From positions 1 to 64,000 of the forward strand of contig JAIXYK010000031.1 in NCBI GenBank assembly GCA_027490225.1: a DNA stretch of 64,000 bases, in the 5' to 3' direction. This DNA is from Bacteroidota bacterium (GTDB taxonomy: Bacteria > Bacteroidota > Bacteroidia > M30B66). Under the pieces are notes generated by a model, which saw only the letters and a program-made list of their open reading frames with translations, made no database searches and was not told the origin of the DNA. Shown in pieces: positions 4,291 to 63,592 of this stretch; within the stretch, counting starts at the first letter, position 1, and each line of letters begins with the position of its first letter. The translations under genes were made by a program, and so were the position numbers.

Positions 4291-4318
4291 AATGAACTTT
4301 AAATTAACTGTAATGCCA

Positions 4319-19980: not shown

Positions 19981-20091
19981 TTCCCCTTTCCCCTTTCTCC
20001 TTTCTCCTTTCTCCTTTCCCCTTTCTCCTTTTAACTTTCTCCTTTCCACTTTATACTTTCCACTTTATACTTTATACTTTTCACTCTCTAC
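19981..20091. repeat. Heptanucleotide array, consensus TTTNNNC (GNNNAAA on the minus strand)
   Basis: Fifteen consecutive 7-base units run without any insertion or deletion from 19987 to 20091, preceded by a partial unit. Examples in + orientation: TTTCCCC, TTTCTCC, TTTCCAC, TTTATAC, TTTTAAC. The array starts one base after the stop codon at 19980 and its last unit (TCTCTAC) contains the stop codon of the convergent methyltransferase gene, so it is the entire intergenic space. The same unit with the same phase recurs at 63453-63592. Confidence 0.9.
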
Positions 20092-20729
20092 CTCTTCCTC
20101 ACTAAGCTCAATCCATCTCTTATAGGAAGTAAAATTACCTCTATTCTATCGTCATTCTTTAATTGCTTATTTAATTGCTGTAAGAGCAAAGTTTCGTCAT
20201 CGTTTTTCTTTGCAATTTCAGTGACCTTCCCACTCCACAATACGTTATCAATAATAATAATACCTCCGCTTCTAACTTTATCAATTACCATTTCATAATA
20301 ATGGATGTAATTTAATTTATCAGCATCTATAAATACCAAATCAAATGTAAAATCGAGCAATGGAATTATTTCTAAAGCCTTTCCTATATGAGGAATGATT
20401 TTATTTTTATTTCCTGATAAATCAATATATCTATTTACTAATTCAGCTCTTTCTTCATTTACATCAATGGTAATTAATTGACCATTTTTACTTAAACCTT
20501 CAGCAAGACAAATAGCTGAATAACCCGTATAAGTTCCAATTTCTAAAATATTAGTTGGCTGAGTAATTTTACTTATAAAACTTAAAAAACGACCTTGAAA
20601 ATGACCAGAGAGCATTCTGGGCTGCAAAACTTTCAAATGTGTTTCTCTTGTTAATTGTTTTAAAACAGCAGGCTCTTCCTCACTATGTTGTTCTGCATAT
20701 TGTTGAATTGCTATAGGAAGAAATTCCAT
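20088..20729 (-). CDS. Class I SAM-dependent O-methyltransferase
   Basis: Cytoplasmic methyltransferase of 213 residues in the catechol-O-methyltransferase-like (Methyltransf_3) family. The SAM-binding motif I is ILEIGTYTGYS, followed by the acidic motif ITIDVNEE, then LVFIDADKLNY, where the Asp typically binds the catalytic metal, and GGIIIIDNVLWSGKV. The substrate is unknown; relatives methylate catechols, caffeoyl-CoA or small phenols. It is the last gene of the long minus-strand run and lies 3 bases downstream of uvrC. Its stop codon TAG sits inside the final unit of the heptanucleotide array at 19981-20091. Confidence 0.92.
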   Translation of the reverse strand: MEFLPIAIQQYAEQHSEEEPAVLKQLTRETHLKVLQPRMLSGHFQGRFLSFISKITQPTNILEIGTYTGYSAICLAEGLSKNGQLITIDVNEERAELVNRYIDLSGNKNKIIPHIGKALEIIPLLDFTFDLVFIDADKLNYIHYYEMVIDKVRSGGIIIIDNVLWSGKVTEIAKKNDDETLLLQQLNKQLKNDDRIEVILLPIRDGLSLVRKR

Positions 20730-45266: not shown

Positions 45267-48200
45267 CTATTTATTTATAATCAAAGGCTTATTCATTCTT
45301 GTTCCATCACTTAATGTAACATGTAATAAATATTTGCCATTTGCTAACCCATCAACATCTAACTTAATTGCATTGCTGCCTTCGGTTAGATTAATTTGTT
45401 GCTTGCTGATATTTCTTCCAGTAATATCGATAATTTGTAGAACCGCTTTTCCTTTGTATTGACCATTGATGTTTAAGGTAGCAGTTTCAGTCGCAGGATT
45501 TGGAAACACATTCATGCTGCTTCCAACCGCACCAGTTAAGAAGACAGCTACAGGAGTAAATGTTTCTTGTTCACCATTAAAATCAACTTGACGTAAACGG
45601 TAGTAAGATACTCCATTGTAAGGTTTTACATCTGTTAATGTGTAATTGCGCGTGAAATTAGAATTTCCTGCACCATTCACTTCACCTACAAATTCAAAGT
45701 TAACTGCGTCTAAAGAACGTTCTACAATAAATTGATCGTTATTTATTTCTGAAGCTGTTGTCCATGTTACCAATACTTCTGCATTATTTACAGGAACAGC
45801 ATCAAAACTTAGCAATTCAACAGGAAGTGGAGAACCGTTGCCAGCACCAGTAAAATCTGAGAAGGTTGTAAGTCCTGACCAAGAGAAGGTTTTAAGTACA
45901 TTATCGTCAGCTCCGGCGGTACCTGTAATTGCAACGGCGGAAGAGCCGGGGCAGCTAAACCATCCTGGAACTGGATTTGTCGTGCTGTATTTTACAGGAT
46001 ACATAACTCCGGTTCCAACTTCATCAGCTGCTGAATATGTATAGTTTATGTTATACAAAGGAATACCAGCTAAGCCCGTTGGCTCAATTGACCAGTAACG
46101 AGCAATATAGCGTGTAGGAACTGGAGCAGTCATATTTGGATGTATTGCATTTACAACTTTAGAATCAATGTACGCATTTGCTTGACCACCGTTGGTTAAT
46201 ACCAATTGAGCAGGACTATAAGTTGCATTGTCTCCAACTGGGAAATCGTAAGTTGCATTCGAATTTGTGTAACGTCTTAAGTTACCTCCGTTACTTATCA
46301 CATAACGTCCAGCTCCAAATCCTGTGATAGTTCCATTTGCAGAACTGTTTCCTATTATTAAATTGTTTACACCATTTAAATTGAAACGACCATTTACAAA
46401 GTTTAAATTATTCAGAATGTTAACATTACTGCTTGTACCTAATTGCACATCTCCAGTTAATGTCGATACTTCTAAATCGTAGAATGTTTCTGAACTAACT
46501 CCAGAACCTACAGTTATAGCTTGATTTCCTGCACTTTGACGGTCAAAAGTTACTTTTTTACTGTTGTGGTTAAAGGCAGACGATGCTCCTGTGCGTGTCC
46601 AATTACCTCCGATGTTAAATGAACCTGTATAGGCTGGAGTAAGGGTAAAAGTTCCATTTGTAATAGTTAGGTTATTTCTCAATGCGCGGGTATCTTGTAA
46701 TTGAAGATCTGTGCCTGTATCATTGATGTCTACATTCCAAGGTATACCAGGTAATCCGGATGCGATAGCACCAGTAGACCAAGTAATATCAGCCGCTGGA
46801 ACCTGATAATCAACAGTGTTAGCAAATCTCAAAGTAGAACCAACACCATAATAACAAGGATTTGGATTAACAGAACCACCTAAAGCAACTTGTAATGTTC
46901 CATTTATTGTTGTTGGACTTCCAGAACCGAAGTCCATTCTACCATCAGCAATTCTCATTAAAACATCAGCACCAACATTCAATGTACCTCCTCCGGGGTT
47001 TGTAACTTGTTTTGTAAATTCTACTGGATTATTTCCACCAATTCCAATTACATCATAAATACAACCCGCACTTCCAGTAATATTTCTATTTCCTGAAGTA
47101 ATTTCAATAGAACCAGCTGCGCCTAAGGTAGCGTTTCTACCGCGATGCGTTAATGTAAATGTACCAAGATTAAGATCACCTGCTAAACGCACATTTCTAT
47201 TTACTGTTCTGCTCGCTCCCATAGTAGGTAAAGCTCCACTTTCAATAATGAGGTCTCTTACAAATGTATTGTTTGAAGAGAACTCGTTTCCAGTGGTAAG
47301 AGTTCCTGCATAGCGCACATCATAAACATCTCCAGAAGTTAAGCTAGCTTCGGCATTCATGGTAGCAGTTGAGTTTGTTCTGTAAATTTCAGAACCATTG
47401 CTCATTGTTACAGATAATGAATTTAGGTCTAAAGTACCGTTAGTTAATCTTAGTCTGTTGCTAACAGTAGTATTTGCGCTAATTTGAACTGTACTTCCAG
47501 TGTTATTAATGGCTAGGTAAGCAAATCCGTTTACACCATTAATAGTTTGCAATGTAGTACCATTCATTTCTACTTCACGGTTATTTTGGGTTAATGTACC
47601 ACCGGTATTTCTGGTGAAGTTTCCTGCAACCTTAATGTCTCCGCCAACAACTGTAGAAAGTGTTAATACTCCAGCATTGTTTACAACAACATTTCCGGCA
47701 ACACCTAAGAAACCTGTCATAGTTTGCATATTTAATCCTGCACCTGGAGATGCTGCTCCTGCGTTGATTGTTAAATTTCCTGCAATTGTTTGGTTGGCAG
47801 CACTACTTCCCATATTTAGAGTTGTATTGGATCCATTTGGATCAATAGTTACATTAAATGGATATCCTGCACCAGCAGTTGCGCTCCATTCAGTTCCTCT
47901 TGTATAAGCACTTCCTGAGAAATATCTCAATGTTGAATTTGTTCCATAGAATGGGGCATTTGTGCTTACAAAACCGCCTAAAGCTATTTGTAAAGTACCA
48001 TTAACTGTTGAAAGGTTTGTTCCAAAGTTAAGACCTCCAGCTAACGCTAAAGTAACATTTGAGCCAAAGTTAAAAGTTCCTCCACCAGTTGCGGTTACTG
48101 TTTTTGTACCTCCTGATATAGAAATCAATCCACCAGATGCTCCTCCAATTGTATTAATTCCTCCAGCAGTAATGATATTACCAGCAGATGCTCCTGTAAA

Positions 48201-51200
48201 TGAAAGTGTTCTGCCATTTAAATCTAAAGAAGTAGCATTATTTAATCTGAAGATATTTCCTCCCAGAGGACCTGTTACAGAAACGTTTGTTGCAGTACTA
48301 TTAGAAATTACTAAAGTGCCAGCCGTTTTATCTACAAAAAGGTAATCAAAAGTAGCTGTACCACCACCTGTAATTTCAATTGTTTGTGTTCCACTACCAT
48401 TAAAGAAAACTGCTCTATTATTAGGGTTAAAGGCTGCAGTATTATTTCGTGTCCAGTTTCCACCAATATATAAATCTCCAGATGTTCCATTTAAGTTAAG
48501 TGTACCATTGGTAATGTTTAAATTACCTCCGAAACCTCTGTTACTTGTTGGGAAATTAACTGTAGTTCCTCCTTGAATTGTTACATTACTTGGAATACCC
48601 GAACCAGCAGTTAAACTATTGCCAGTCCATTCTTGGCTCATATTATATGCCCCTCCAGTATTATAAATTAATGAAGCTCCAGATAGATAAGTAGGAGAGC
48701 CTGAAACAAAGAAGCTACTTGCATTTAATTGCAAAGCATTAGAAATGATAGGTGCAGTTGTTAAAGTTGTATTGCCGTTTAAAGTTAAATTATTAAAAGT
48801 AACACTATTAGCACCTGCTATCGCAACCGTACCGTTGCAATAAACTTCACCATTTCCAAAATTTAAATTTGAACCACTAGCATTTACAACAGAACCTAAG
48901 TTAGCTATTGTAATAGTTTTTCCAGCACCAACTGTTAATGAACCTCCAGCATTTAATGTTAATGAGTTAACAACATCTGGATTAGGGTCAGTAGTTAAAA
49001 TATTAATATTGTGTAAAATACAAACATTTGAGTTAGGAGAAGGTATAATAGTTCCTCCTAAATTCCAGCTATTAGGGTCATTCCATTGTCCATTATTAGC
49101 TGTTTGAACGCAACTGGTAAATCCATTGATGTTACCCACCAAGAACAATTGATCTGATAAGTTTCCTGTATAATTAACTGTAGAAGTTGATAAATAAGGG
49201 TCAGCTCCTGATAAAGCTGTAGGCCTTACTCCATAAGTACTTCCTGATATCCAATTTCCGTGGAACACACCATTTGCCCTTAAGAAACCTGAGGCTTCAT
49301 CATTAGGAGTACCATTATTCCATTGGAATTTAGTTACCAAATTATTTGCTCCAGCAGTCGATTCATTTAAATACCATTGTAAGTTAACCATTTGATTTGC
49401 ATCCGCTAAAGATTGGTCAAAAGGAGTTGCTTTTACTCTTACTCCAATGGTTTCAGAAGTTCCGGCTTGATTTAAAATAGCTGGTGCATAACTGGTTGAA
49501 ATTCCAACCGGGAAAGTTAAGTCAACACTTGAAACAACTCTTCTTAAATATCCTGTTCCATTTGTTTGAATGAATCTGGTAGTTGAAGCTCCTGTTATAG
49601 TTGCAGAAGCCATGTTTAAGTTAAAGTTTCCAATTGAAAGAATTCCATTGGTTAGAGTTAATCCATTATTTACATTAATTGCAGCGCTTAAGTTCGCACC
49701 AGATGCGTTATTTAATATTAAGAAAGCAAAACTTGTTAAGCTTGCATTGCTTCCGCCCACAGTTTGAATAGATGTACCATTTAAAAATACAGCCCTGTTA
49801 TTAGGGAAGAAGTTTACACCTGAGCCATTATTAGTCCAATTACCACCTACATAAATATCTCTACCTGATGCTTGAGAAGCTGATAAATTACCGTTTAAAT
49901 TAAGGTTTCCAGTAACGTTTAAATTTACCAACATATTATTACCTCCAAAGTCCATGTACATATTCGAACCAGCATCAATTGTTAAATTTCCACCTACATT
50001 TAATACAACACTATTGTATGCATTAGTGATTTTTGCAGGAATCAAAGTAGTGTTTCCGCTAATTTGGACATTTACAGGAGCTCCTGCTCCAGTTGCAGTG
50101 CTCCATTCTAAATCACGACCATAGTTTGCACCTGTGTTGTACATTAAAGTAGAAGAAGCTCCATAATTAGGGGCTGCACTAATGGTACCACCTGCGTTTA
50201 TTTGGAATATTCCATTTATGGTTGGTACTCGGGTTAAAGTTGCTAGTCCATTTATTGTAAAGTTATTAAACTGGCATGCAGTTGTCCCATTAACAGTTCC
50301 AGTTCCTGAAAACACCACATTACCAGTACCACCAGTAAATGTTCCATTGTTTGTAAGTACATCAGTTGCACTGAAAGTTAAAGTACCACCACCTGTCATG
50401 TTAATAGTTCCATTGTTTGTTAAGGAAGTATTAACGCCAATTGAACCACCACCAAACGCTATTGATTTTGTAGCATTTACTAAAATAGTATTTGGAGCAT
50501 TTACAACTGTGCCATTTATTGTAATGTCGTGATTTACTGTAGTTGTCGCATTAGCTATAGGAACATTTCCTCCTAACCAAGTAGAACCTGTGTTCCAATC
50601 GGTATTGTTGTTTGTAATGTAACCTAGATAAGTGAAAGGCACTGTGGCCGGAGTTGAACCTACAGCATTTGTTGCTACTAAGTTACCTGATGCTCCACTA
50701 CCAACAATATAATAAGCTGTTGTAGAAGTAGCTGCAGGTGTTGTAAGAATTGCTGCACTACCACCTAAAGTTACAGAAGTAAGAGCATTTAAATTTAATC
50801 CTGTAATTGTAATCACTTCCCCTGTATAAGCAGTTGTTGGAGTGTAGCTTGTTATTAAAGGAATTTGTAAAAATGCATTTTCAATACCAGGCTCAAAAAT
50901 ACCAACAGTAGTAATTCCGGATGCTGTGTAGGTGTAAGGATCGCTTCCAGAAAGCGTTGCAGCATTATTAGTCCAAGCTCCCGATGTAAAGTTTCCTATC
51001 CATTTGATTGCATTTCCTCTTACAAAGTTAATTTCTTCTTGACCTGTTTGAGCAACAGGAGCATTCCACTGAGCTGTTACAGCTAAGTTACTTCCACCTG
51101 CTGTACCCTCATTTATATCCCAATTTCTTAAAACAATTTTTGATGCATCCGCTTCACTTCCTGCGGCTCCATCTCTGGCAATAACACCATATACATCGGC

Positions 51201-54200
51201 TGTCCCACTGTTGTTTAATGTAACAGGATTGTAAGTAGAATTTCCAACTGGGAATAAAATATTAGAACTTCCTACGTCTAATCTTAATCTACCAGAACCA
51301 TTAGTTATCGCATATGAAGTAGCACTTCCTGAAGCCTGAGTAGCTGCTCTTAAATCATTACTTCCAAGAATTACGTTTCCGCTTGTTAATGTAAGTGTTG
51401 AATTTACTGTAACAGGGTCATTTAATGTTAAGTTACTTCCAACAGTTTTTTGAATCAACAAGAATTGGAAAGTTTCACCGCCATTTGCTGTGATACTTTG
51501 AGCACCTGTTCCATTAAAGAAAACTCCTCTTCCATTAGCACCAGTTCCAACAAGGCTACCAAAACTATTTCTATTCCAGTTTCCTGCTACTCTAATACCC
51601 GGGCTTGTTGCATTTGTGGATAAAGTTAAGGTACTAGTAGCTACATCGCTTCCTATGGTTAAGTTCCCACCAACAGTAATAGCTTGATTTGTTGATTGCA
51701 TGTTTAATGAACCAGCACTTCCTGTAACACCTAAAGTTAGATTATTAACTATACCCAGATTAGTAGTTGGAGCTCCAATATTTAAAGTAGTTCCATTTTG
51801 AATGATAACATTTCCTGGATATCCTGCAGGGCCACTCAATGTTGACCATTCTACTAAACGTCCATAAGCAGTTCCACTATTATAAACTAAGTTCGCAGTT
51901 GCAGCATAAACTGGTACACGGCTGTTCGCATCAAATGCTGCAACATTTCCATTTGCATCCATTCTTAGAGTACTGTTGCTGTTGATATCAAAAGCACCAT
52001 ATCTAACTTCAAAATTATTTCTTGCTAAAGCCAAAGTGGCTCCAGCTGCAACATTTGTAGAGTACACTTTACAAACAGTTATATTAGAGCCTGTTACAGT
52101 AACTAAACCTGTAATGTCTAGGATCATATCATTACCTATTCCTGCATCCGTTCCTAAAAGTATTCCTGTAACTTCTAATGTAGCTGATGCTCCAGTCATA
52201 CTTAATGTAACAGCTCCATTAGATCTAAGTGTACCACTAAGAACGCGCACATTTCCATTTACAGTTCTGCTGAAAGGTAAAACTACAAGAGAGGAATTGT
52301 TGGCAGTAAAATTTGTAGGACCGTTTACTGATGGGAATTCTAAAGCATTAGCGGTTTGCGTAAAAACACCATTATAAGATAGGGTAGAGGCTGTACCATA
52401 TGTTAAGGCATTAGTTGTTATGCTTCCACCTTGATTCACGCGCAATGTGCCTGCAATTGAAGTACTTAACCCAAGATTTATAGGAGAATTTATTGTTACG
52501 TTATTAAATGGAATGCCACCTGTAGTAGATACTGTGCAAGATCCTGCAAAGACAACGGTTCCTGTTCCTCCTGTGAAAGTTGCAGAACCATTAGCAAATG
52601 CAGAAGCGTTCGCCATAGTTAATATTCCACCAGCTGTCATTATAATGCTTCCTCCATTGGTTAAAGTTGTGTTAACTGTTAATGTTCCAGCTGCCCCAAA
52701 AGTTAAACTACTTCCAGAACGGATGGTTAATGTGTTAGGATTGTTAGCAACTACACCATTAGCAGTTACTGCATGCGCAATTGTAACAGCAACAGATGCA
52801 GGAGGCACAACGCCACCTAACCAAGTTGAACCTGTTCCCCAATCAGTAGAAGCATCAGAAATCCAACCTAAGAAAGTGAATGCAGCATTTGTTGTACCTG
52901 AAGTAACAGTATTTGTAACCACAACTGTTGCTCCTGATGCTGCTTGAGCTACTACTGCAGTTATTGTAGTAGAATTTACCACTGTAAATGTTGTAGCTGC
53001 TAAACCACCAATGGAAACAGTCATTCCAGCTGTGCTGGTAAAGTTTGTACCTGTAATGGTAAGCGTTTGCCCAACATAACCAGTATAATCTGCTTGAGGA
53101 GCAAAAGTTGGACTTGTACCTTGAACTAAAGTAATTGTTGGAGGTGCAATAGGATTAGCGAATGCTAAAAATTGTGTATTACCTGCGCTGAAATTAGAAT
53201 TCGCAATTTGACTACCTGATGGAGTTCCTCCAATGAATACATATGTTCCAGTTGCGGTAGTTGTGCTTCTTCCTATAGAACTCAGCGGTGATACTGCTGT
53301 AGGGCGTGCAAGTGTAAATTGACTACCGTTAAAGTTTCCTGTTGCAGCTAAAGACCAATATTCTGCTGTGCTTAAAGAGCCAATTGAATTCGGGTCAGGC
53401 GTTCCGCCAGAATTCGTATTGAAGGCTTCCATTGTTACACTAACAGCACCAGTTCCTGTAGTAGGATTTACTAAGTTGGCCGGTAAGTAAGTTATTGGGC
53501 TTTGCTTTCCAACAGGGAAGTTATAAGTAGTTCCAGTTAAAAGTGACGCAGGTAAACTGCGGTTTAATCTTCCACTAACAAATGAATTTGCAGAGGCTCC
53601 TGTTATTCCTGTAGTTGCAGTATTAGAAACAAAAACAGTATTTGAAACAGCATCTAAAATACCTGTTCCTAAAACGAGTTGGTTGCTCACGGTTGCATTT
53701 CCAGCAAGGGTTACAACATTAGTTGCTAGGTCTTTATCCATGTAAAGATTAACCATTGTTGCTGGTAAACCAGTTCCTACAGTTTGTGGTGAAATTGAAC
53801 CCACGAAACCATAACTAGCAGTTGTTGGTAAATTGCGTATATCAGTTCTTAAGTTTCCAGTTGCACCGCTTGCATCTATTGTGCCTCCATATTTTAATGT
53901 TGCTCCTGCATTTACATTAAATGTACTTGTAACACCTGCATCTGAAATTGTAAAGCCACTTCCTAATTGGAAACAAGTTGGACTATTTACATTAAATACA
54001 TCCTGAACACTAAATCCAGCTTGAGCAACAACATTTGCTAGCAAAGCTCCTACGCTTGCACTTGCAGAATTTAATTCAACATTAAAATAGCTTACATTAC
54101 TAGCACCAGCGTTGTAAGTGCCTCGAATAGAATGTGTTTGACCTGTTGCGCTTCCATATAACTCAACAATTCCACCAGAAATAGCATATGGAGTAGCAAC

Positions 54201-57200
54201 TCCCGTTATCTCTGGCAAGGTTACGTTAAGTTTAGCCATTCTGAGTCTACCACCTGTCATGGTTAAACCTGCTGCACCTGTCATACCGTTTGATTGTAAA
54301 TCGAATACAGAAGTACCGCTAACCAAAACATTATTGTTAACTATTAATGCAGAAGAAACACCTTTGAAATCAGTTCCAAAAGTATTTGAACCGGTAGCTG
54401 CAATATTGTAATAAGCAGGAGGCGCTCCCGATAGGGTCTGGTTTCCAGTTGCATTTAATTCGACTGTACCTCCAGTTAAACTATAATTTGCATAATTTGA
54501 TAAAAATGGAACAGTTGCAGAGTTTGATTGAATTCTGTAAGTACCACCGCTCATTACCAAACGGCCTGTACCAGAAAAATCTGCAGAGTTAGTACCTACA
54601 ACGATACCTCTTCTGATATCTAATTTTCCACCTAATGCATCAACCAATGTTCCATTAGAAATACCAATATTGTTGCTTAATGTTAGGGTATAAGTATCAA
54701 GGTCTAAATCTGAAATAACCACTTTACCTGTGCTGCCAACTGTAAGCGCGTTTCCTGTTACCTGATTTGCTTTACCAATGTACCAGAAAGTGGCAGTATT
54801 GTTAAATGTCTTATTAGAAACTGGTAGTTGAACGTTACCCAAATTGGCAGTAACTGTTCCAACAATACCATCTGGTGAAGTAATTTTTAAAATACTTCCT
54901 TGAGCCGAATTGAACGTATTAGTTCCTGTTGGTGTACCTGGTTGATTTACTAATAATGCAGTAGTTCCATTGAATCCAAAATCTAATGTACCATTTGCTT
55001 CAACAACTAACGATGAGTTATTATTTAATGTTAAGTTATTCGTATTCAATTGAACAATCGCATTTGCTTTTATGGCCATTGGAACACCTGCAGATCCAGA
55101 TCCACTTACAACTGAAGCAATGTTTACTAATTGGGTTGTTGTACCAGTAAAGTTGAACTGTTGATCAGCTATCGCACCCAAGTTCCCAAGTATAGGATTT
55201 GCGCCTACAGTTATATTACCTTTTAAGTTAACAATACCCAATGCACCATTAGCCGTTCCATAAGCGTTTTGATTCAACCAAAATCTTGTTGTTGCAGCAG
55301 TTCCTGCACCATTCATTACTATATTACCATCTATATTAAATGTAGCACTTCCACTTATTGAGTTACTAGCACGTACTGTAAATGTTCCAGGTGAATTATG
55401 AACCAAATTACCTTTTAAATTCATCACCAAAGTAGCTGTAGAAGTTGTTAATGCTACATTTCGAGCAGAACTCCATCCGCTGTTCAATACCAAATCCCCT
55501 TGAATACCTACCGTTGCAGATCCTCCAATTGTTGTGAAAAAGCGAATATCAAAACCATCTGGTGAATCAAATTCGAAGTTTCCATGAGTTAAGTTAATCG
55601 TTCCTGTTGATGAACCTAACAATGTCCAATTAGCGCCAATACCAGATGCACCAGCAATATCGATATAAACATTACCGAATGCAGCAGAATAACCGCTATA
55701 CGTATTAGCAGTAACATTACCGTTTATAAGTGGTTGTGCATCATCCCAATTCCAAATATTCAGGTTAGACAAAGCACCAAAGTTTTCATTCCCTTGCCAG
55801 ATTGAAGTAGAAGGATTCCCAAATGCAAAATTTAGAAACACATCAGCATTGTCTTCTACTGTAAAGGTTCCGCCAATAGCAATTGTAAAAGAAGCATTTA
55901 CTTGCAGGGTTCCTCCAGATCTTACTAGAATACTAGCAGCTGTTGAAGGATGATCTACTATTAAAGTACCACCGCTTTCAATAATTAAATTAACGGTATT
56001 TCCGAATGCACCATTTGTTGTTAGTGTATGACCATTTCTAATGTAAACATTATTGGAGGTTCCATATGCTGGAGAATTGCTCGCAGTCCAACCAGCAGTA
56101 AGTCTTTCCCAAATTGCTGGTAATGCTGTATTGCTATTCCAAAGTCCTGAAGCCGTTGTGCGGTAACTGTTTAATGGTGTACTTACAATATCAAAAGGAT
56201 CACTACCAATTGTATTGGAGAATGCCAAGCCTGTAGTAGTTGCAGTTAATGTTAAATTTGTACCTGTTGCTGAATGGTTTAGTGTAGAATAGGTTGCAAC
56301 ACCTGCAACAGCCGACGCATTAACAGGTGTTCCTGTAAGTGAACCAGTTGAAGTAATGTCTATAGAACCAGTATAATCTAAATCTAAACTAGAACCTAAG
56401 TCTGTTCCTCTAACTGTAACTGTAGCCATATTGGTGCTGACAGTTGTTGTAATAGGTTGAACTAAAAATGCTAAACGATCGGCAGTAACCTCAATTCGGT
56501 TAATATCACCTGTGGTAGAAGATGTTGCACCACCGCCATTACCTGCTGCAAATGCAGAAGAACCAGAGACCGCAGAAGTTACTGAAGTAACTGTAAATTG
56601 CATTTGCTGGTTATCAGTAACAGGTGCATTAAATGTTACACGTAAACTTAAAGCCAATTGGGCGTTATCAGCAACTGAAACCCCTGTTAATCCTGAAAAT
56701 ACAATAGGTGATGTTCCACTTACTGTAACTGCTGCTCCTAATGGACTAGCTCCATTAAATAAACGCGCCGAACGAATACTTCCGGGATTTGTAACCGAGA
56801 AGGTAATTCCTGTTAATTCTGTTCCTAAGTTATCAGCATCTGTAAGTGTTGCGCCTCCATCTCTCAGGAAGAAGCCCATTACGCCAGCACTTCCATTCAC
56901 GCCAGTTCCTGTATTTGATAGTACTGTTCCTTGATAAGATATGTAATCGATATTGGCATTTGTACTAACTGCCGAACCACTGTTAAATGAAACATCGCTT
57001 AAATTACTTGCAGTACCAACACCTTGAATATAAAAAGCATAATTAGGTTCATCGCTATCATTGCTTGGTATCGTTAATATCGCATCGAACGAAGCAACAG
57101 CGTTAGGAGTAAAAGTCACAACAAATGTTGTAGAGCTTCCTGCAGCAATGCTATTAGATGGAGGTGTTGTAATACTGAAATTACTTGGGTTTGAACCACT

Positions 57201-60200
57201 AATCAATACGTAAGGAGAAACACCGCTAATGTTAAGTGTTGAGCTTCCTGTATTTTGAATAGTAAAAGTACGGGTTGCAGTTGCTCCCCAAGCTGTGTTT
57301 ACAAATGTTGTGTGGTCTGTTAATGAAGGCGTATTGTCGCCATCAACTATATTTACTGAATTTCCAGTAATATTGATTTCAGGTGCTGGATTGTTTACCG
57401 TAAATACAACTTCATTTGAAGTAACTGTGTTAGAACATGGCGCTGGATAAGTGCTTTCGCATACTATATAATATGTGCCAGCTGAAGCAAAGTTAGGAAC
57501 TTGTGTTTGAGCAGTTCCTAAATTAGTTCCATAAGGTCCTCCAGGTGCGGTTCCATATTTCCATTGGCGAGAAGAAAATGTATGTCCTTCGTTAACCGTT
57601 AAAGTAGCGCCATTGGTAGAAGTAACCAAAGTTTGAGCACCCGCTGGTGTAATACTCGTAATTGAATTGTTGATGGTTAAGTTTGTAACATTTGCTATTC
57701 CGTTTACAGTCGGAGAAGTTGAAACAACACGAATGCGGTAACCTGTTCCTGTTAATGTTCCCGAAGGAATAGTTACTGATATTGATTGAGAACCGCTCGC
57801 ATTGGACGTTACAGATTGTAAATTTACAGGTGAACCAAATAAACCTGAAGCATCAGAAAGTTGTGCAGTAAAATTAGCCACACCATTCGGGAAATTTCCC
57901 GCTGGTGAATATGTAAATGGAACACTTACTCCCGCAACACCAGCACAATAAGTTGTTGTTCCTCCTCCAATTGTTCCAGTAGTAATGGTGCCCAATGAAA
58001 CGACATTCCCTGTAAATGTGAAATCGTTGATACTAAATGTACCTCCTGTTCCTCCCCATGCATACACGCGGAATGTAATAGCTGAATTTATGTTTTGATA
58101 AGTACCAGCAGTTAAGGAAATAGTTGTTCCTGTAATAGAAGGTGTTCCAATGTTAGCAGTATATCCATCCACACTCGAGCGAATCGCAATGTTTGTTGGA
58201 CCTGTTCCTGATGCTTGACTAGTATATACTAAGTTATTAAAGTTAATCTGATATCCTGTATTAGGAGTTAAAGTAAGTGAGAAATAATCGTTTGCATCTA
58301 ATGCTCCCGTATTCCATCCATTTGCATTGTAACGGTCATTTGCAGTTGCATTAGCAATTCCTGGTCCCATTCCTATGCCCGAAACAGCTATTAAAGGATC
58401 CACAGTCTGACCAGTAGTATATGGATTAGCAGCACCAGGATTTGTTCCTGCAATAGGATTCGTCCAAATAGTAACTGGAGCAGTTGTAGTTGCACAACTT
58501 GTTTGTGGCTCACCTACCAATTTATAATTAATGTTACTTCCGCTATTGGTGTAAGACCAAATGCGCATGAAATAAGTGGTACCGCTTGTCAATGAAGGAA
58601 TGGTATAATTTCCAACTCCTTGTGCCACGTTTCGTGCTCCTAATGTTGCATTCGCTAAATCTGCAACTGGAGTTCCATCGCTTGGTGCAGTAATACTGGC
58701 ATAAGAAGTATTGCTCCATTGAATCAAATATCCGTCAGGTAAAATACCTGTTGATGCATCTGTCCAAGTTAATGGAATGGATGTAGCTGTAGTTGTTCCG
58801 CAAGCAAATAAAGTTGGATAATTAGTTGGTTCCGCTTTAATGAATGTGCGTGTATTTCCCGCCGCAACTGGATTTGTTCCGGTTTTGTTGCCTAATGTGA
58901 ATGTTAAATTAGAAAAGGCAGTTGTGCCTAAACTGATAGTATTGTTAGGTGTTGCAGTGGCAGAAATATCTGCTGTAATAAATATGTATCCAGTTGTTCC
59001 TGCATTAATTACTTGAGAAGTAAACGAAGGGAAAACTTTGCTTCCTGCAACACCCGGTGTAGTGAAAGTACTTAATGTAGCATCACCTCCATCTAATGTT
59101 GCATCTGTTGAGTAACGAACTTTTAAGTTTACTACATCAGCAGAAGTATATGTTCCTGCTGTTGTAACTGTAATACCTGTTAGAGTTGCATTGCTTGAAG
59201 TTACTGCGAAATCGAAACGATTTAAAACGATGTCGGTGCTGCTTGGTATATGCGAACTAGCAGCTGGAGAACTGTTTGAAATAGCGATGGCCGGATTTAC
59301 AATCGTAACAGTATTGCTGGCTGCTACCGGGTCTGTTCCTGTCTCTGTACCTGATGTGAAGCTGATATTTGAAAAAGCTGTATTCCCTAAGCCAATGGTA
59401 TTACCACCAGTTGCAGTTGAAGCAATATCAGCAGTGATAAATATATAGTAAGTACCAATTGCAAGTGCCTGCGCTGTAAATGAAGGGAAAACTTTGCTAC
59501 CTGCAACACCTGGTGTTGTGAGTGTACTCAAAGTTGCGTCTCCACCATCTAATATGTTATCTGTAGAGTAACGTACTTTTAAGTTGATGATATCTGCGGA
59601 AGCATACGTTCCTGTGGTTGTTACTGTTAAGCCGTTGAACGTTGTTCCTGCAACAGTAACTGCAAAGTCTAAACGTTGTAAAACCACATCGTTTGTACCT
59701 GCGTTTTGGTTGCTCGAAGCTGGAGCTGAATTGCTAATGGCAATAGAAGGAGACGTGCTCACGAATGTTTGAACACCTCCAGCTGCTACTGGATCCGTTC
59801 CTGTTTTGGTTCCTGAGCTAAAACTGATATTTGAAAAAGCAGTAGTTCCTAAGTTAATAGTATTTCCGCCTGTGGCTGCTGGTGCTATATCAGCAGTTAT
59901 GAATATATAATAAGTAGCTCCTGAAATGAGCGCTTGAGAAGTAAAAGAAGGAAACACTTTAGCGCCCGAAACACCAGGTGTTGTTAATGTACTTAATGTG
60001 GCATCTCCAACATCTAATATGTTATCTGTGGAGTAACGAACTTTTAGATTAGTAATATCAGCAGAAATATAAGATCCTGCTGTTGTTACATTTAAACCTG
60101 TAAGAGAAGTGTTTGCAACAGTTACAGCCAAATCTAATCTTTGTAAAACAACATCATTTGTACCTGCATTTTGGTTGCTTGCAGCAGGTGCTGAATTACT

Positions 60201-63134
60201 AATTGCAATAGAGGACGGGGAAATAAATGCATTATCTTTTCCGATAACTATATATGAACCAGCAGGAATTGTCGCAGGGAACTGAGCAGAGCCAGTAGAA
60301 GTTGCGGTAAAAGGATTAGAACCAGCAAGTGTAGTTGCAACTTGTGTCCAAGAAGAGGCGTTGTAAAAACCCATATAAGGAGTAACTCCTGCATTATAAT
60401 TTGTTCCAACATCACCTGAATTGTATTGTCCAACCACAGGCGTTAAATTACTATTACCTGCAACAGCTTCTGTAATATACCAACTTCTAAGTACTGTGCT
60501 TGTAGGATCTGCAGCATTTGGAGGATTTCCATCAGCTACTCTTATTCCATAAGTATCACTTGTTCCTGTATTTGTAAATGTTATTGGGTTATATACCGAA
60601 TTACCAACAGGGAAAACAACAGCGGTACCTGCTACAATTTGTCTTAACTGACCGGTATTGCTTGTTCTTACATAGCTGGTTGAACTTCCGCTGGCTGTAG
60701 TACCAACTGTCATATTATTTGTACCCAACACAAAAAATCCTGCAGTAAGTGTTAACGTATTATTTACAATGACCGGAATTCCAAGCGTTACAGTTGTACT
60801 TCCAGTTTTATCGATGAGCAACCAATCGAACGTAACATTTGCATTTGTGCTTGTTATATTTTGTGCGTTACCTAAAACAAAGAATACTGCTCTAGAATTA
60901 TTCACTAAAGAGCCATTCATTGCAAAATTACCACCTAAATATAAATCACCAGCACTTGCATTTAAAGTTAAAGTTGTACTTGCATTAACAGTAATGTTTC
61001 CCGGCGCACCTCTTCCTCCTGCAAGGGTAAGATTAGTACCTGCATTTTGAATAATAACATTTGCAGGAATACCAAAACCAACAGCAACAGTTGTAGATGC
61101 ACCACCTGTCCATTCGTTGCTCGTTCCATAAGGCCCTCCTGTATTGTATACCAAAGTAGAAGAAGCACCGTAATTAGGGGAATTTGTGCTAATACTTCCT
61201 CCTGAATTAATTTGTAATGTACCATTAATAGTAGTTACAGCAGCTCCTGGATTTAAACTACCTGATGAAACGACAACCGTAATACTTGTTCCAATGGTTA
61301 ATGTACCAGATGAGCTTCCACTTATTGTTTTATTATTAGTTACAGCAATTGTAGCTGCTGAACTTGAAGTAATATTTTTAACAGTTCCACCAGTAGCTCC
61401 ATTTGCCAATATATTTCCACCTGAATTATTTAAAGTAAGCGTTCTTCCATTTAAATCTAATGAGCCTGCGTTTAAGAATTGTAACACATCACCTGCGGTA
61501 GTATTTATTGTAACATTTGTAGATGAAGCAATTTGCACAGACCCTGCAGATTTTCCTATCAATAAATAATCGAAAAACTGAGTACCACTTCCTGCGGTTA
61601 TTACAGATGTACCTGTTCCTGTAAAGTAAACTGCTCTTGTATTGTTTGTCCAAGTACTACCGTTATTAGTTAGATTACCTCCTAAATACAAATCACCTGA
61701 TGTTGCGTTGAGCACCATACCACAGGATGCGTTAACAGTTACATTTCCCGGAACTCCTCTGCCGCCGGCTAGGGTAAGCGTACCAGTTTGAACAGTAACA
61801 TTTGCGGGTATTCCAGAGCCTGCTGCAACAGACGCAATTGCCCCTCCAGTCCACTCATTAGATGTACCATAGGTGGTGTTATAAATTAAAGTTGAAGAAG
61901 AACCATAAGTTGGTGTAGTTTGAAAATTACCACCATTTATTTGTGTTGTTCCGTTTAAAGTTAAGGCTGTTCCCTGCACCGCATTTGTTCCCGTAACTAG
62001 CAAAAAAGTTCCAGTTGTCCCGCTGGAAGGAACAGTTCGCGCAACACCCATATTAATTCCTCCGCCACCTTGCACGGTAACATTCGCAGGCCCATTTGTG
62101 GCAGGCCAATACGTGTGTCCTGCGTTAATTGGACCATAAGGACCTGATGTATTATTATATACTAAAGTACTTGAAGTACCGTAAGTCCAAGTTCCTCCTG
62201 ACGCAAAACCTCCTTGATTTATTTGAAAAGTTCCATTAATAGTTGCTGTTCCTGTAATTGTTAAAGAAGCATCCACTATTAAAGTTCCACCTAAATCTAC
62301 TGTAACATTGGCAAGTTGTTGAGCAGTAGTAATTCTCATGGTTGCACCACTATTTACTACTATGCTATTACCAACTGGGATTGTTGTGCCTCCAGTTCGG
62401 TTTAGTTGCATCGTTCCTCCATTAACTGTTGTTAAACCTGTATACGAATTAGCACCTGTTAGCAAAAGAATACCTGCTCCAGTACCAACTTTTCTTAATG
62501 GATTTGCGCCGGTAATTGCAGAACTGATAGTTATACCCCCAGCTGCGTCAATTGCAATAACATTAGCTGTAGCATTACCCAAACCAATGTTTAAATTTTG
62601 TGTTCCGTTTGCAATGGTGTGAGTAGTAGCGCTATTGTTTCTTATAATAGTATTTGCGATTGTATTTATTGTTGTTCCATTAAGCGTCAAAGTTCCTGCT
62701 GCAGTTCCTGAGCTATTATTTACAGTTCTAGCAGTGGTCGCAGAAGCTCCAAAATGAATGGATCCTATGCTTGAATTTGCACCTGGGATTCCATTCATGT
62801 TTATTCCAGAAGTTGGCTGAGTATTTAAATTAAAAAATGCTTCAGCTGCTGTTCCTGATGGTACACCACCAGAAGACCAATTTCCTGCAGTTAGCCACGC
62901 TCCGCTGCTGGCACCAGACCAAACACTTTGCCCCCAGCTCGCATTGCTGATTAAAACAAGCGTTGCTGCAAGTAAAAAGCTCCGGTTCGCCATCCGTTTT
63001 AATCGGAAATTGCTTTTTTGGAGGTGAGTTTTGTTTTGGGAGGTTGATTTTAAATTTGCTACTGGCAAAAGTTCAACATTGGTAGTGTTGAAGATGGTAA
63101 GCAGTAGGTTTTTTAAAGTAGAAATCATTCTCAT
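45267..63134 (-). CDS. Giant T9SS-exported beta-strand-repeat surface protein (about 5955 residues)
   Basis: A very large, Thr/Asn/Ser/Gly-rich, Cys-poor protein, probably a cell-surface adhesin. Residue positions below count from the upstream TTG at 63197 (21 residues before the ATG used here). An autotransporter-associated beta-strand (PATR) segment lies near 210-265 (GILLLTGANSYTGLTTVNGGTMQL); many modules of type GSISTNSPNYGASSTLVYN; three 152-155-residue repeats (about 990-1450); a FN3-like domain (about 1455-1585); a choice-of-anchor-D domain (near 1935); two IPT/TIG domains (near 3355-3440 and 4110-4200); further beta-strand modules; a final FN3-like stretch (VELLSFDAVP); and a T9SS type A sorting domain (last 85). 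ATG candidates are 63134, 63128 and 62993; the signal peptide (NRSFLLAATLVLISNASWGQ) follows 62993. I see no frameshift. Confidence 0.9.
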   Translation of the reverse strand: MRMISTLKNLLLTIFNTTNVELLPVANLKSTSQNKTHLQKSNFRLKRMANRSFLLAATLVLISNASWGQSVWSGASSGAWLTAGNWSSGGVPSGTAAEAFFNLNTQPTSGINMNGIPGANSSIGSIHFGASATTARTVNNSSGTAAGTLTLNGTTINTIANTIIRNNSATTHTIANGTQNLNIGLGNATANVIAIDAAGGITISSAITGANPLRKVGTGAGILLLTGANSYTGLTTVNGGTMQLNRTGGTTIPVGNSIVVNSGATMRITTAQQLANVTVDLGGTLIVDASLTITGTATINGTFQINQGGFASGGTWTYGTSSTLVYNNTSGPYGPINAGHTYWPATNGPANVTVQGGGGINMGVARTVPSSGTTGTFLLVTGTNAVQGTALTLNGTTQINGGNFQTTPTYGSSSTLIYNTTYGTSNEWTGGAIASVAAGSGIPANVTVQTGTLTLAGGRGVPGNVTVNASCGMVLNATSGDLYLGGNLTNNGSTWTNNTRAVYFTGTGTSVITAGSGTQFFDYLLIGKSAGSVQIASSTNVTINTTAGDVLQFLNAGSLDLNGRTLTLNNSGGNILANGATGGTVKNITSSSAATIAVTNNKTISGSSSGTLTIGTSITVVVSSGSLNPGAAVTTINGTLQINSGGSISTNSPNYGASSTLVYNTGGPYGTSNEWTGGASTTVAVGFGIPANVIIQNAGTNLTLAGGRGAPGNITVNASTTLTLNASAGDLYLGGNFAMNGSLVNNSRAVFFVLGNAQNITSTNANVTFDWLLIDKTGSTTVTLGIPVIVNNTLTLTAGFFVLGTNNMTVGTTASGSSTSYVRTSNTGQLRQIVAGTAVVFPVGNSVYNPITFTNTGTSDTYGIRVADGNPPNAADPTSTVLRSWYITEAVAGNSNLTPVVGQYNSGDVGTNYNAGVTPYMGFYNASSWTQVATTLAGSNPFTATSTGSAQFPATIPAGSYIVIGKDNAFISPSSIAISNSAPAASNQNAGTNDVVLQRLDLAVTVANTSLTGLNVTTAGSYISADITNLKVRYSTDNILDVGDATLSTLTTPGVSGAKVFPSFTSQALISGATYYIFITADIAPAATGGNTINLGTTAFSNISFSSGTKTGTDPVAAGGVQTFVSTSPSIAISNSAPASSNQNAGTNDVVLQRLDFAVTVAGTTFNGLTVTTTGTYASADIINLKVRYSTDNILDGGDATLSTLTTPGVAGSKVFPSFTAQALAIGTYYIFITADIASTATGGNTIGLGNTAFSNISFTSGTETGTDPVAASNTVTIVNPAIAISNSSPAASSHIPSSTDIVLNRFDFAVTSSNATLTGITVTTAGTYTSADVVNLKVRYSTDATLDGGDATLSTFTTPGVAGSKVFPSFTSQVINAGTTGYIFITADISATATPNNTISLGTTAFSNLTFTLGNKTGTNPVAAGNTRTFIKAEPTNYPTLFACGTTTATSIPLTWTDASTGILPDGYLIQWSNTSYASITAPSDGTPVADLANATLGARNVAQGVGNYTIPSLTSGTTYFMRIWSYTNSGSNINYKLVGEPQTSCATTTAPVTIWTNPIAGTNPGAANPYTTGQTVDPLIAVSGIGMGPGIANATANDRYNANGWNTGALDANDYFSLTLTPNTGYQINFNNLVYTSQASGTGPTNIAIRSSVDGYTANIGTPSITGTTISLTAGTYQNINSAITFRVYAWGGTGGTFSINDFTFTGNVVSLGTITTGTIGGGTTTYCAGVAGVSVPFTYSPAGNFPNGVANFTAQLSDASGLFGSPVNLQSVTSNASGSQSISVTIPSGTLTGTGYRIRVVSTSPTVNGIANVTNLTINNSITSITPAGAQTLVTSTNGATLTVNEGHTFSSRQWKYGTAPGGPYGTNLGTAQTQVPNFASAGTYYIVCESTYPAPCSNTVTSNEVVFTVNNPAPEINITGNSVNIVDGDNTPSLTDHTTFVNTAWGATATRTFTIQNTGSSTLNISGVSPYVLISGSNPSNFSITTPPSNSIAAGSSTTFVVTFTPNAVASFDAILTIPSNDSDEPNYAFYIQGVGTASNLSDVSFNSGSAVSTNANIDYISYQGTVLSNTGTGVNGSAGVMGFFLRDGGATLTDADNLGTELTGITFSVTNPGSIRSARLFNGASPLGAAVTVSGTSPIVFSGLTGVSVADNAQLALSLRVTFNAPVTDNQQMQFTVTSVTSAVSGSSAFAAGNGGGATSSTTGDINRIEVTADRLAFLVQPITTTVSTNMATVTVRGTDLGSSLDLDYTGSIDITSTGSLTGTPVNASAVAGVATYSTLNHSATGTNLTLTATTTGLAFSNTIGSDPFDIVSTPLNSYRTTASGLWNSNTALPAIWERLTAGWTASNSPAYGTSNNVYIRNGHTLTTNGAFGNTVNLIIESGGTLIVDHPSTAASILVRSGGTLQVNASFTIAIGGTFTVEDNADVFLNFAFGNPSTSIWQGNENFGALSNLNIWNWDDAQPLINGNVTANTYSGYSAAFGNVYIDIAGASGIGANWTLLGSSTGTINLTHGNFEFDSPDGFDIRFFTTIGGSATVGIQGDLVLNSGWSSARNVALTTSTATLVMNLKGNLVHNSPGTFTVRASNSISGSATFNIDGNIVMNGAGTAATTRFWLNQNAYGTANGALGIVNLKGNITVGANPILGNLGAIADQQFNFTGTTTQLVNIASVVSGSGSAGVPMAIKANAIVQLNTNNLTLNNNSSLVVEANGTLDFGFNGTTALLVNQPGTPTGTNTFNSAQGSILKITSPDGIVGTVTANLGNVQLPVSNKTFNNTATFWYIGKANQVTGNALTVGSTGKVVISDLDLDTYTLTLSNNIGISNGTLVDALGGKLDIRRGIVVGTNSADFSGTGRLVMSGGTYRIQSNSATVPFLSNYANYSLTGGTVELNATGNQTLSGAPPAYYNIAATGSNTFGTDFKGVSSALIVNNNVLVSGTSVFDLQSNGMTGAAGLTMTGGRLRMAKLNVTLPEITGVATPYAISGGIVELYGSATGQTHSIRGTYNAGASNVSYFNVELNSASASVGALLANVVAQAGFSVQDVFNVNSPTCFQLGSGFTISDAGVTSTFNVNAGATLKYGGTIDASGATGNLRTDIRNLPTTASYGFVGSISPQTVGTGLPATMVNLYMDKDLATNVVTLAGNATVSNQLVLGTGILDAVSNTVFVSNTATTGITGASANSFVSGRLNRSLPASLLTGTTYNFPVGKQSPITYLPANLVNPTTGTGAVSVTMEAFNTNSGGTPDPNSIGSLSTAEYWSLAATGNFNGSQFTLARPTAVSPLSSIGRSTTTATGTYVFIGGTPSGSQIANSNFSAGNTQFLAFANPIAPPTITLVQGTSPTFAPQADYTGYVGQTLTITGTNFTSTAGMTVSIGGLAATTFTVVNSTTITAVVAQAASGATVVVTNTVTSGTTNAAFTFLGWISDASTDWGTGSTWLGGVVPPASVAVTIAHAVTANGVVANNPNTLTIRSGSSLTFGAAGTLTVNTTLTNGGSIIMTAGGILTMANASAFANGSATFTGGTGTVVFAGSCTVSTTGGIPFNNVTINSPINLGLSTSIAGTLRVNQGGSITTNALTYGTASTLSYNGVFTQTANALEFPSVNGPTNFTANNSSLVVLPFSRTVNGNVRVLSGTLRSNGAVTLSMTGASATLEVTGILLGTDAGIGNDMILDITGLVTVTGSNITVCKVYSTNVAAGATLALARNNFEVRYGAFDINSNSTLRMDANGNVAAFDANSRVPVYAATANLVYNSGTAYGRLVEWSTLSGPAGYPGNVIIQNGTTLNIGAPTTNLGIVNNLTLGVTGSAGSLNMQSTNQAITVGGNLTIGSDVATSTLTLSTNATSPGIRVAGNWNRNSFGSLVGTGANGRGVFFNGTGAQSITANGGETFQFLLIQKTVGSNLTLNDPVTVNSTLTLTSGNVILGSNDLRAATQASGSATSYAITNGSGRLRLDVGSSNILFPVGNSTYNPVTLNNSGTADVYGVIARDGAAGSEADASKIVLRNWDINEGTAGGSNLAVTAQWNAPVAQTGQEEINFVRGNAIKWIGNFTSGAWTNNAATLSGSDPYTYTASGITTVGIFEPGIENAFLQIPLITSYTPTTAYTGEVITITGLNLNALTSVTLGGSAAILTTPAATSTTAYYIVGSGASGNLVATNAVGSTPATVPFTYLGYITNNNTDWNTGSTWLGGNVPIANATTTVNHDITINGTVVNAPNTILVNATKSIAFGGGSIGVNTSLTNNGTINMTGGGTLTFSATDVLTNNGTFTGGTGNVVFSGTGTVNGTTACQFNNFTINGLATLTRVPTINGIFQINAGGTISAAPNYGASSTLMYNTGANYGRDLEWSTATGAGAPVNVQISGNTTLIPAKITNAYNSVVLNVGGNLTIDAGSNMYMDFGGNNMLVNLNVTGNLNLNGNLSASQASGRDIYVGGNWTNNGSGVNFFPNNRAVFLNGTSIQTVGGSNASLTSFAFLILNNASGANLSAAINVNNGLTLTNGILSIGNFNLNMASATITGASTTRFIQTNGTGYLRRVVSSVDLTFPVGISTSYAPAILNQAGTSETIGVRVKATPFDQSLADANQMVNLQWYLNESTAGANNLVTKFQWNNGTPNDEASGFLRANGVFHGNWISGSTYGVRPTALSGADPYLSTSTVNYTGNLSDQLFLVGNINGFTSCVQTANNGQWNDPNSWNLGGTIIPSPNSNVCILHNINILTTDPNPDVVNSLTLNAGGSLTVGAGKTITIANLGSVVNASGSNLNFGNGEVYCNGTVAIAGANSVTFNNLTLNGNTTLTTAPIISNALQLNASSFFVSGSPTYLSGASLIYNTGGAYNMSQEWTGNSLTAGSGIPSNVTIQGGTTVNFPTSNRGFGGNLNITNGTLNLNGTSGDLYIGGNWTRNNTAAFNPNNRAVFFNGSGTQTIEITGGGTATFDYLFVDKTAGTLVISNSTATNVSVTGPLGGNIFRLNNATSLDLNGRTLSFTGASAGNIITAGGINTIGGASGGLISISGGTKTVTATGGGTFNFGSNVTLALAGGLNFGTNLSTVNGTLQIALGGFVSTNAPFYGTNSTLRYFSGSAYTRGTEWSATAGAGYPFNVTIDPNGSNTTLNMGSSAANQTIAGNLTINAGAASPGAGLNMQTMTGFLGVAGNVVVNNAGVLTLSTVVGGDIKVAGNFTRNTGGTLTQNNREVEMNGTTLQTINGVNGFAYLAINNTGSTVQISANTTVSNRLRLTNGTLDLNSLSVTMSNGSEIYRTNSTATMNAEASLTSGDVYDVRYAGTLTTGNEFSSNNTFVRDLIIESGALPTMGASRTVNRNVRLAGDLNLGTFTLTHRGRNATLGAAGSIEITSGNRNITGSAGCIYDVIGIGGNNPVEFTKQVTNPGGGTLNVGADVLMRIADGRMDFGSGSPTTINGTLQVALGGSVNPNPCYYGVGSTLRFANTVDYQVPAADITWSTGAIASGLPGIPWNVDINDTGTDLQLQDTRALRNNLTITNGTFTLTPAYTGSFNIGGNWTRTGASSAFNHNSKKVTFDRQSAGNQAITVGSGVSSETFYDLEVSTLTGDVQLGTSSNVNILNNLNFVNGRFNLNGVNNLIIGNSSANGTITGFGAGRYVISNGGNLRRYTNSNATYDFPVGDNATYSPAQLVLTNGGQANAYIDSKVVNAIHPNMTAPVPTRYIARYWSIEPTGLAGIPLYNINYTYSAADEVGTGVMYPVKYSTTNPVPGWFSCPGSSAVAITGTAGADDNVLKTFSWSGLTTFSDFTGAGNGSPLPVELLSFDAVPVNNAEVLVTWTTASEINNDQFIVERSLDAVNFEFVGEVNGAGNSNFTRNYTLTDVKPYNGVSYYRLRQVDFNGEQETFTPVAVFLTGAVGSSMNVFPNPATETATLNINGQYKGKAVLQIIDITGRNISKQQINLTEGSNAIKLDVDGLANGKYLLHVTLSDGTRMNKPLIINK
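58841..60222 (-). repeat. Three tandem 456-465-bp repeats in the giant gene
   Basis: A conserved anchor (ACTTAATGT-like) recurs at 59070, 59526 and 59991. Each unit encodes 152-155 residues starting IAISNS(A/S)PA and containing NLKVRYSTD, GDATLST, TTPGV and YIFITADI. The three are similar but not identical; the C-terminal one is the most diverged. Confidence 0.88.
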
Positions 63135-63452
63135 AGTTGGTGGGATTGATGTTGGAGGTTTGGGCTTTTTTGTTTGGTAGTTTCTTTTTAAAATCAATTA
63201 ATTACGGGCAGAAAATTGATGAAGATGAGTTTTGCTAGTAATGTCATGGTGATAATTTTTGTTCAAGATGTTAAAAGTAAGTTAATTTTATGTTTTGTAC
63301 AAATTATTAAGTAACTGAAATTTAATATATTATGAACAAATGTTTAACAATAGAGTGAGAATGCAGTCAATATGGGTGTTTGACGGTGTTAGAATGACAC
63401 AGTATGGATTGCGGGGGGTGATGTAAGGAATTGTTTTAGTTTTGAGTAAAAA

Positions 63453-63592
63453 GCATAAAGTTGAAAGCATAAAGTTGAAAGTATAAAGTTGAAAGTATAA
63501 AGGGGAAAGGGGAAAGGTGAAAGGCGAAAGTATAAAGTTGAAAGTATAAAGTTGAAAGTATAAAGTTGAAAGTATAAAGGGAATAGGAGAAA
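63453..63592 (+). repeat. Heptanucleotide array, consensus GNNNAAA, 20 units
   Basis: Twenty consecutive 7-base units without a single insertion or deletion. All but one (GGGAATA, 63579-63585) fit GNNNAAA exactly. The order of the variable triplets is CAT TTG CAT TTG TAT TTG TAT GGG GGG GGT GGC TAT TTG TAT TTG TAT TTG TAT, then GGGAATA, then GAG. The same unit alphabet (GTATAAA, GGGGAAA, GGAGAAA) occurs on the minus strand of 19981-20091. It ends about 320 bases upstream of the giant gene's ATG at 63134. Confidence 0.95.

What the first reader, a model, noticed from the sequence alone, without database searches (positions are those of the whole stretch)
63453..63592. A 20-unit heptanucleotide array with a variable triplet (GNNNAAA) upstream of the giant surface-protein gene
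Twenty 7-base units follow one another in perfect phase over 140 bases. The frame G...AAA is kept while the middle three bases vary among a small set (TAT, TTG, CAT, GGG, GGT, GGC, GAG). An ordinary microsatellite would have one unit and drift by slippage; this keeps the register and varies only the centre, including an alternating TAT/TTG pattern on both sides of a purine-only block (GGGGAAA GGGGAAA GGTGAAA GGCGAAA). It could be a protein- or RNA-binding array, a triplex-forming element, or an unknown selfish repeat.
Basis: seen in the sequence. Interest (0 to 1): 0.68.

Follow-up and report, generated by a model that had tools for sequence, protein, structure and literature searches.

The report
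Genome-wide seven-base intergenic repeat arrays
The array is one of about 45 runs of a seven-base repeat (fixed AAAG plus three variable bases) scattered between genes of this bacterium, a new variety of the heptamer repeats known from cyanobacteria, Xanthomonas and Beggiatoa, and it is probably expansion-prone spacer DNA rather than a switch for the giant surface protein.

Summary
In detail: window 63450-63582 (+) carries 19 uninterrupted AAAG-NNN heptads, and none is expected by chance. It is not specific to the giant gene. The same window holds a second array (19983-20080, -), and about 45 arrays (486 perfect units) were read in this 3.77-Mb Bacteroidia genome.

Three features stand out. 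(1) A motif-free scan finds 43 period-7 arrays in 0.6 Mb, against 0-2 for periods 5, 6, 8-11 and 13; a minority use a second unit, TAATKAA. (2) AAAG is nearly invariant while the triplet varies within a small set, often alternating, so the real module is 14 bp. (3) Arrays sit between convergent genes, rarely in divergent promoters, and begin within a few bases of a stop codon on their own strand.

Family members keep AAAG; other families of the class have their own fixed tetrads. Triplex, canonical quadruplex and RNA-fold readings fail, and a dedicated Y1 transposase is not required. The closest published kind is heptameric intergenic repeats (GGGNATC in Xanthomonas/Nostoc, with the same placement rule; TAACTGA in Beggiatoaceae; cyanobacterial STRR). 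I judge it a new variant of that kind, spread mainly by 7/14-bp expansion at tolerated gene ends. Why the tetrad is conserved is open.

The parts
63450..63582 (+). heptad array, 19 perfect AAAG-NNN units (the finding)
63583..63592 (+). degenerate 3' tail of the array (ATAGGAGAAA), one in-phase unit after a broken one
19983..20080 (-). second heptad array in the window, 14 units, filling the gap between two convergent genes
20088..20729 (-). O-methyltransferase gene (PF01596); its native stop lies 7 bp before the 5' edge of array 19983-20080
   Evidence: homologues align over residues 1-213 of 213
18910..19980 (+). DUF4421 protein gene, convergent neighbour whose stop lies a few bp from the 3' edge of the same array
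45267..62993 (-). giant surface-type ORF next to the finding; likely ATG at 62993 about 457 bp from the array; no sign of a functional link
   Evidence: ORF 45267-63197 from a TTG; start re-read

Best explanation
The array is one copy of a dispersed, lineage-specific heptanucleotide repeat family (STRR-type) in a Bacteroidia genome. Shown: about 45 arrays, period 7 only, unit AAAG + (T/G)(A/T/G)N, order often alternating so that the module is 14 bp, sharp edges, location between genes and above all right after stop codons and between convergent genes. Inferred: arrays arise where an expansion can be tolerated and then grow and turn over by slipped-strand mispairing or unequal recombination in steps of 7 and preferentially 14 bp. 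Out-of-register pairing of neighbouring heptads keeps the tetrads matched while the triplets mismatch. I take most arrays to be host-neutral, selfish-like spacer DNA, tolerated at gene ends and removed from promoters. Why the tetrad is the part that never varies is not shown: either expansion needs it or something binds it.
For: Genome-wide family: 276 five-unit matches, 49 BLAST places, 45 arrays read. Motif-free scan of 598 kb of this genome: 43 period-7 segments against 0-2 for periods 5, 6, 8-11, 13. Lag-2 unit identity 0.45 against 0.24 permuted (z 11.9), lag-1 below expectation; lag 2 also exceeds lag 1 in G002, G006, G007, G016. Arrays break the assembly at contig ends and pairs of ends carry matching units (C52/C14 TAT, C24/C33 TTA-TTG, C4/C2 TAG), as expected of long homogenised centres. 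Two-unit seeds in array-free intergenic DNA are at chance (10 against 7.4), so growth looks threshold-like. 13 of 25 arrays between convergent genes against 40 of 301 gene pairs, p 1.6e-5. Flanking genes are almost all different between species, and 80 named loci of the O-methyltransferase neighbour hold one unrelated heptad run in 637 kb.
Against: Pure slippage plus point mutation should spread variants at all seven positions, yet core positions are 98-99.5% conserved while triplet positions reach at most 64% for one base (partly by definition, but single misses were allowed). The placement polarity (5' edge 8 bp, 3' edge 68.5 bp from the nearest gene boundary, p 0.0024) is not predicted by symmetric growth. 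At one locus two genera keep an array in the same gap and orientation with wholly different triplets but the same AAAG (C44 and G007 L231). No strain comparison was possible, so copy-number change is inferred, not seen.
Confidence: 0.55

Rival explanations
1. A functional binding array: a lineage-specific DNA- or RNA-binding protein recognises AAAG every 7 bases downstream of genes (3' end processing, termination or mRNA protection), and selection keeps the tetrad and the placement.
For: Near-invariant tetrad beside free triplets; tight sense-strand placement after native stops, 20 of 37 at the 5' edge against 6 of 38 at the 3' edge within 15 bp; 12 against 1 in other genomes; tetrad retained across two genera at one locus; C-rich, G-poor, unstructured antisense strand.
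Against: Array-bearing genes have nothing in common (GAPDH, TadA-like deaminase, dnaE-like, ABC transporter, O-methyltransferase) and array sites are mostly not shared between species; most genes have no array; 312 of 460 units carry a sense stop, so a sense frame running into an array must end at its 5' edge, which inflates the polarity.
Confidence: 0.2
2. The arrays are one part of a composite mobile element that also contains the ~79-bp unit with the palindrome ACCACGAAGTGGT, moved by an unseen transposase.
For: All 11 copies of the palindrome in the genome lie just 3' of a heptad array, in one orientation; a GC variant follows the C5 array.
Against: Only about 6 loci have it; one of them follows a different heptad (TAATGAA); no shared flanks at the other arrays; array-rich G006 and G007 have no Y1_Tnp match.
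Confidence: 0.1
3. Triplex- or quadruplex-forming DNA selected for its shape.
For: A subset of units is purine-only (GGG, GAG); 5 of 31 arrays could form long-loop G4.
Against: 0 of 31 arrays meet the canonical G4 pattern, 0 of 31 are at least 90% polypurine and only 3 of 31 hold a purine tract of 50 bp; the commonest unit, AAAGTAT, allows neither.
Confidence: 0.03
4. A phase-variation switch for the giant surface-protein gene.
For: It lies upstream of the gene and repeat number could vary.
Against: 457 bp from the likely start; the same arrays flank housekeeping genes; Rehm 2015 (PMC4692102) reached the same negative for GGGNATC.
Confidence: 0.04

Closest known systems
GGGNATC heptameric intergenic repeats of Xanthomonas and Nostoc (Rehm et al. 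2015, PMC4692102)
   Same: 7-bp unit with a variable position; dispersed; 2-26 units there, 3-42 here; [quoted passage not shown] under-represented between divergent ORFs; single arrays and inverted pairs; no link to surface genes
   Different: Different unit; not quadruplex-forming; three variable positions instead of one; strong 14-bp alternation; here over-represented between convergent genes, there mainly between aligned ORFs; 83% of their sites shared between two Xanthomonas species, few shared here, though at genus distance
TAACTGA heptamer direct repeats of Beggiatoaceae, cyanobacteria and some Bacteroidetes (MacGregor 2015, PMC4679880)
   Same: Intergenic heptamer arrays, long in some Bacteroidetes and mixed there with other heptamers; sites not conserved between relatives; contigs end in the arrays
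   Different: One fixed unit; in Beggiatoaceae mostly short and just upstream of start codons in sense orientation, the reverse of the placement here
Cyanobacterial STRR heptanucleotides (Calothrix; known here only through its citation in PMC4692102 and own knowledge)
   Same: Short tandem heptanucleotides dispersed between genes
   Different: Different units; sequences not compared here
REP elements with RAYT (Y1) transposases
   Same: Extragenic, gene-end location; a palindromic unit follows some arrays
   Different: The heptads are not palindromic; array-rich relatives lack Y1 transposases

Membership tests
Heptameric intergenic (STRR-type) repeats as a kind | tandem units of exactly 7 bp, dispersed in many arrays | tested here: met
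Heptameric intergenic (STRR-type) repeats as a kind | intergenic, avoiding coding and divergent promoter regions | tested here: met
   13 of 25 convergent, 1 divergent; the only ORFs called across arrays are two short ones (C6, C7) on the stop-free antisense strand
GGGNATC repeats (Rehm 2015) | unit GGGNATC / GGGGA(C/T)T | tested here: not met
   unit is AAAG-KDN
GGGNATC repeats (Rehm 2015) | quadruplex-forming G tracts | tested here: not met
   0 of 31 arrays with canonical loops
GGGNATC repeats (Rehm 2015) | close to the 5' neighbouring ORF, after the stop on the coding strand | tested here: met
   confounded in part by stops in the units
TAACTGA repeats | unit TAACTGA in 2 or more copies | tested here: not met
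   no such unit among the de novo period-7 arrays; second unit is TAATKAA
Classical microsatellite / phase-variation SSR | single repeated unit, contingency gene, copy-number change between strains | tested here: inconclusive
   mixed units and housekeeping neighbours; strains not available
REP/RAYT elements | palindrome with a resident Y1 transposase | tested here: not met
   G006 and G007 array-rich without Y1_Tnp
CRISPR array | repeats of about 20-40 bp separated by unique spacers | tested here: not met
   7-bp units with 3-base variable parts

The most novel reading that the evidence does not exclude
Each Bacteroidia lineage carries its own split heptad (a fixed purine tetrad plus a variable triplet), written, extended or kept in register by a tetrad-recognising machine with a 7-nt step and a polarity away from gene ends. 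The tetrad changes between families (AAAG here and in G034, AAGA-type in G293, G350, G277, G299) as a co-evolving recognition site would.
Probability: 0.13. Interest if true: 0.78.

Novelty: new variant of a known kind. Interest (0 to 1): 0.42.

Why it matters
Why bacterial genomes over-produce tandem repeats of exactly seven bases is an old, little-studied puzzle. This genome offers an unusually clean case: period 7 and almost nothing else, a unit split into a fixed and a free part, and a 14-bp order. The same placement rule as for unrelated heptamers in Xanthomonas and Nostoc suggests that placement follows from the 7-bp process or from tolerance at gene ends, not from the quadruplex proposed there. 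The arrays also break short-read assemblies at contig ends.

Tried and rejected
Triplex, G4, RNA hairpin and Rfam families. A Y1/RAYT transposase as the necessary driver. Phase variation of the giant gene. Many two-unit seeds as precursors (chance level). Replication-strand preference: AAAG strand has positive GC skew at 21 of 31 arrays, p 0.07, not significant. A shared flanking motif at most arrays: none except the palindromic unit at a few. Universality of AAAG in the class: AAAG arrays in 67 of 395 genomes, AAGA arrays in 49 of 395, different genomes favouring different tetrads, so AAAG is a lineage trait. Literature searches for a named Bacteroidetes heptad family found only MacGregor 2015. 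Curved DNA: A-tracts every 7 bp are out of helical phase, so net bending should largely cancel (reasoning, not computed).

Full report
What is there. Window 63450-63582 (+) holds 19 consecutive AAAG-NNN heptads. Dinucleotide-Markov simulations of the window give no run of four units. A second array of 14 units lies at 19983-20080 on the other strand and fills the gap between an O-methyltransferase gene and a DUF4421 gene that converge on it.

It is a genome-wide family. The genome (3.77 Mb, 66 contigs) has 276 overlapping five-unit matches; 45 arrays of 3-42 units, 486 perfect units in all, were read in full. Several contigs begin or end inside an array, and ends pair up by unit type (C52/C14 TAT; C24/C33 TTA-TTG; C4/C2 TAG), which suggests long homogeneous centres that short reads could not cross (the pairing is inference).

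Period seven is the rule. A scan that assumes no motif, over 598 kb of this genome (an array-enriched sample), found 43 period-7 segments and 0-2 for each of periods 5, 6, 8, 9, 10, 11 and 13 (stricter version). In eight unselected 20-kb stretches period 7 again leads (2 segments), though the numbers are small. 32 of the 43 pass as AAAG arrays; most of the rest are a second, A+T-rich heptad, TAATKAA, some of it at contig ends.

The unit is split. Over 31 arrays of six or more units the AAAG positions are 98-99.5% conserved; the triplet is T/G, then A/T/G, then any base, with C rare. Arrays were found by AAAG, so the inner conservation is partly by construction, but isolated misses were allowed and are rare, and the motif-free scan finds the same core. 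Unit order is not random: identity at lag 2 is 45% against 24% in permutations (z 11.9), with lag 1 below expectation. Edges are sharp: in-phase core match falls from 0.99 to 0.60 and 0.39 in the first two units outside the 5' edge and to 0.49 and 0.41 outside the 3' edge (background 0.29). Two-unit seeds in array-free intergenic DNA are at chance level.

Placement. Of 25 arrays with two neighbours, 13 lie between convergent genes (baseline 40 of 301 pairs, p 1.6e-5) and 1 between divergent genes. The 5' edge on the AAAG strand is a median 8 bp from the nearest gene boundary and the 3' edge 68.5 bp (22 against 6 arrays, p 0.0024). In 20 of 37 arrays a stop codon of a same-strand ORF lies within 15 bp of the 5' edge; the mirror case holds in 6 of 38 (p 0.0006). 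Several stops are native: the O-methyltransferase aligns with homologues to its last residue, and the TadA-like deaminase matches its profile to the end. In other genomes the counts are 12 against 1. Caveat: 68% of units carry a stop on the AAAG strand, so any sense frame entering an array ends at once; ORFs were called by length, not by homology. The array of the finding is an exception: no same-strand gene ends near it.

Relatives. Seven of nine family members searched carry AAAG arrays with overlapping triplet sets; G004, complete, has none, nor does G001. Across 395 genomes of the class 67 have six-unit AAAG arrays and 49 have AAGA arrays, with different favourites, e.g. AAGA in G299, G293, G350 and G277. 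Within this family AAAG is specific: 240 AAAG matches against 0 AAGA in the own genome, 62 against 0 in G006. Array neighbours are almost all different between species. One locus is shared: the gap upstream of the Fib_succ_major-type gene on C44 holds an antisense heptad array in G007 too, with different triplets and the same tetrad. In 80 named loci of the O-methyltransferase (best identity 64%, Flavobacteriia and relatives) there is one heptad run in 637 kb, of another unit.

What it is not. Both RNA strands are unstructured and no Rfam family matches. Canonical quadruplexes and long polypurine tracts are absent or rare. Array-rich G006 and G007 lack Y1 transposases. Neighbours include many housekeeping genes, so a switch for the giant gene is unlikely.

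How it most likely works. I take it as a heptanucleotide expansion process acting in 7- and 14-bp steps, tolerated at gene ends and purged from promoters, with fast turnover of triplets and sites. That the tetrad never drifts within a lineage is the unexplained part: expansion may need it to keep neighbouring heptads paired, or something may bind it. The same placement rule was published for GGGNATC heptamers in Xanthomonas and Nostoc (PMC4692102), and heptamer arrays at non-conserved sites were noted in a few Bacteroidetes (PMC4679880). This is therefore a new variant of a known kind, remarkable for its split unit and its exclusivity of period.

Noticed in passing
own genome C14:152-323, C44:37886-37996, C46:29369, C65:20668-20933, C43:148143 (L075, L062, L084, L063, L253): A ~79-bp unit with the palindrome ACCACGAAGTGGT, tandem at C14 and C65; all 11 copies in the genome lie just 3' of a heptad array in one orientation. 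A GC variant (CCCCGAAGGGG) follows the C5 array twice.
   Followed up: partly
L260:1-112, L253:5175-5259, L086:7327-7417, L067:6014-6072, L084:2565-2607: A second heptad family in the same genome, TAATKAA (TAATGAA/TAATTAA), some of it at contig ends, one array close to an AAAG array.
   Followed up: partly
G293, G350, G299, G277, G042, G305: Other Bacteroidia have heptad arrays with other fixed purine tetrads (AAGA or AGAA) and variable triplets; G350 has facing inverted pairs about 80 bp apart.
   Followed up: no
L062 (own C44:20001-39474): Cluster of paralogous genes of about 720 aa (Fib_succ_major and carboxypeptidase-regulatory-like domains) with heptad arrays of both orientations in the gaps.
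   Followed up: partly
window 45267-62993 and 30925-36897: Two very large ORFs (5976 and 1990 aa as called) with internal tandem repeats: about 465-bp units near 59320-60212 and 213-bp units at 32738-33786.
   Followed up: no
window 4091-4293: Imperfect 85-bp tandem repeat (2.3 copies) in a gap between genes.
   Followed up: no
L238, L235 (G016): G016 arrays interleave AAAGCTG heptads with GGAAGCT/GGAGGCC heptads, a unit whose A/G core also varies.
   Followed up: no
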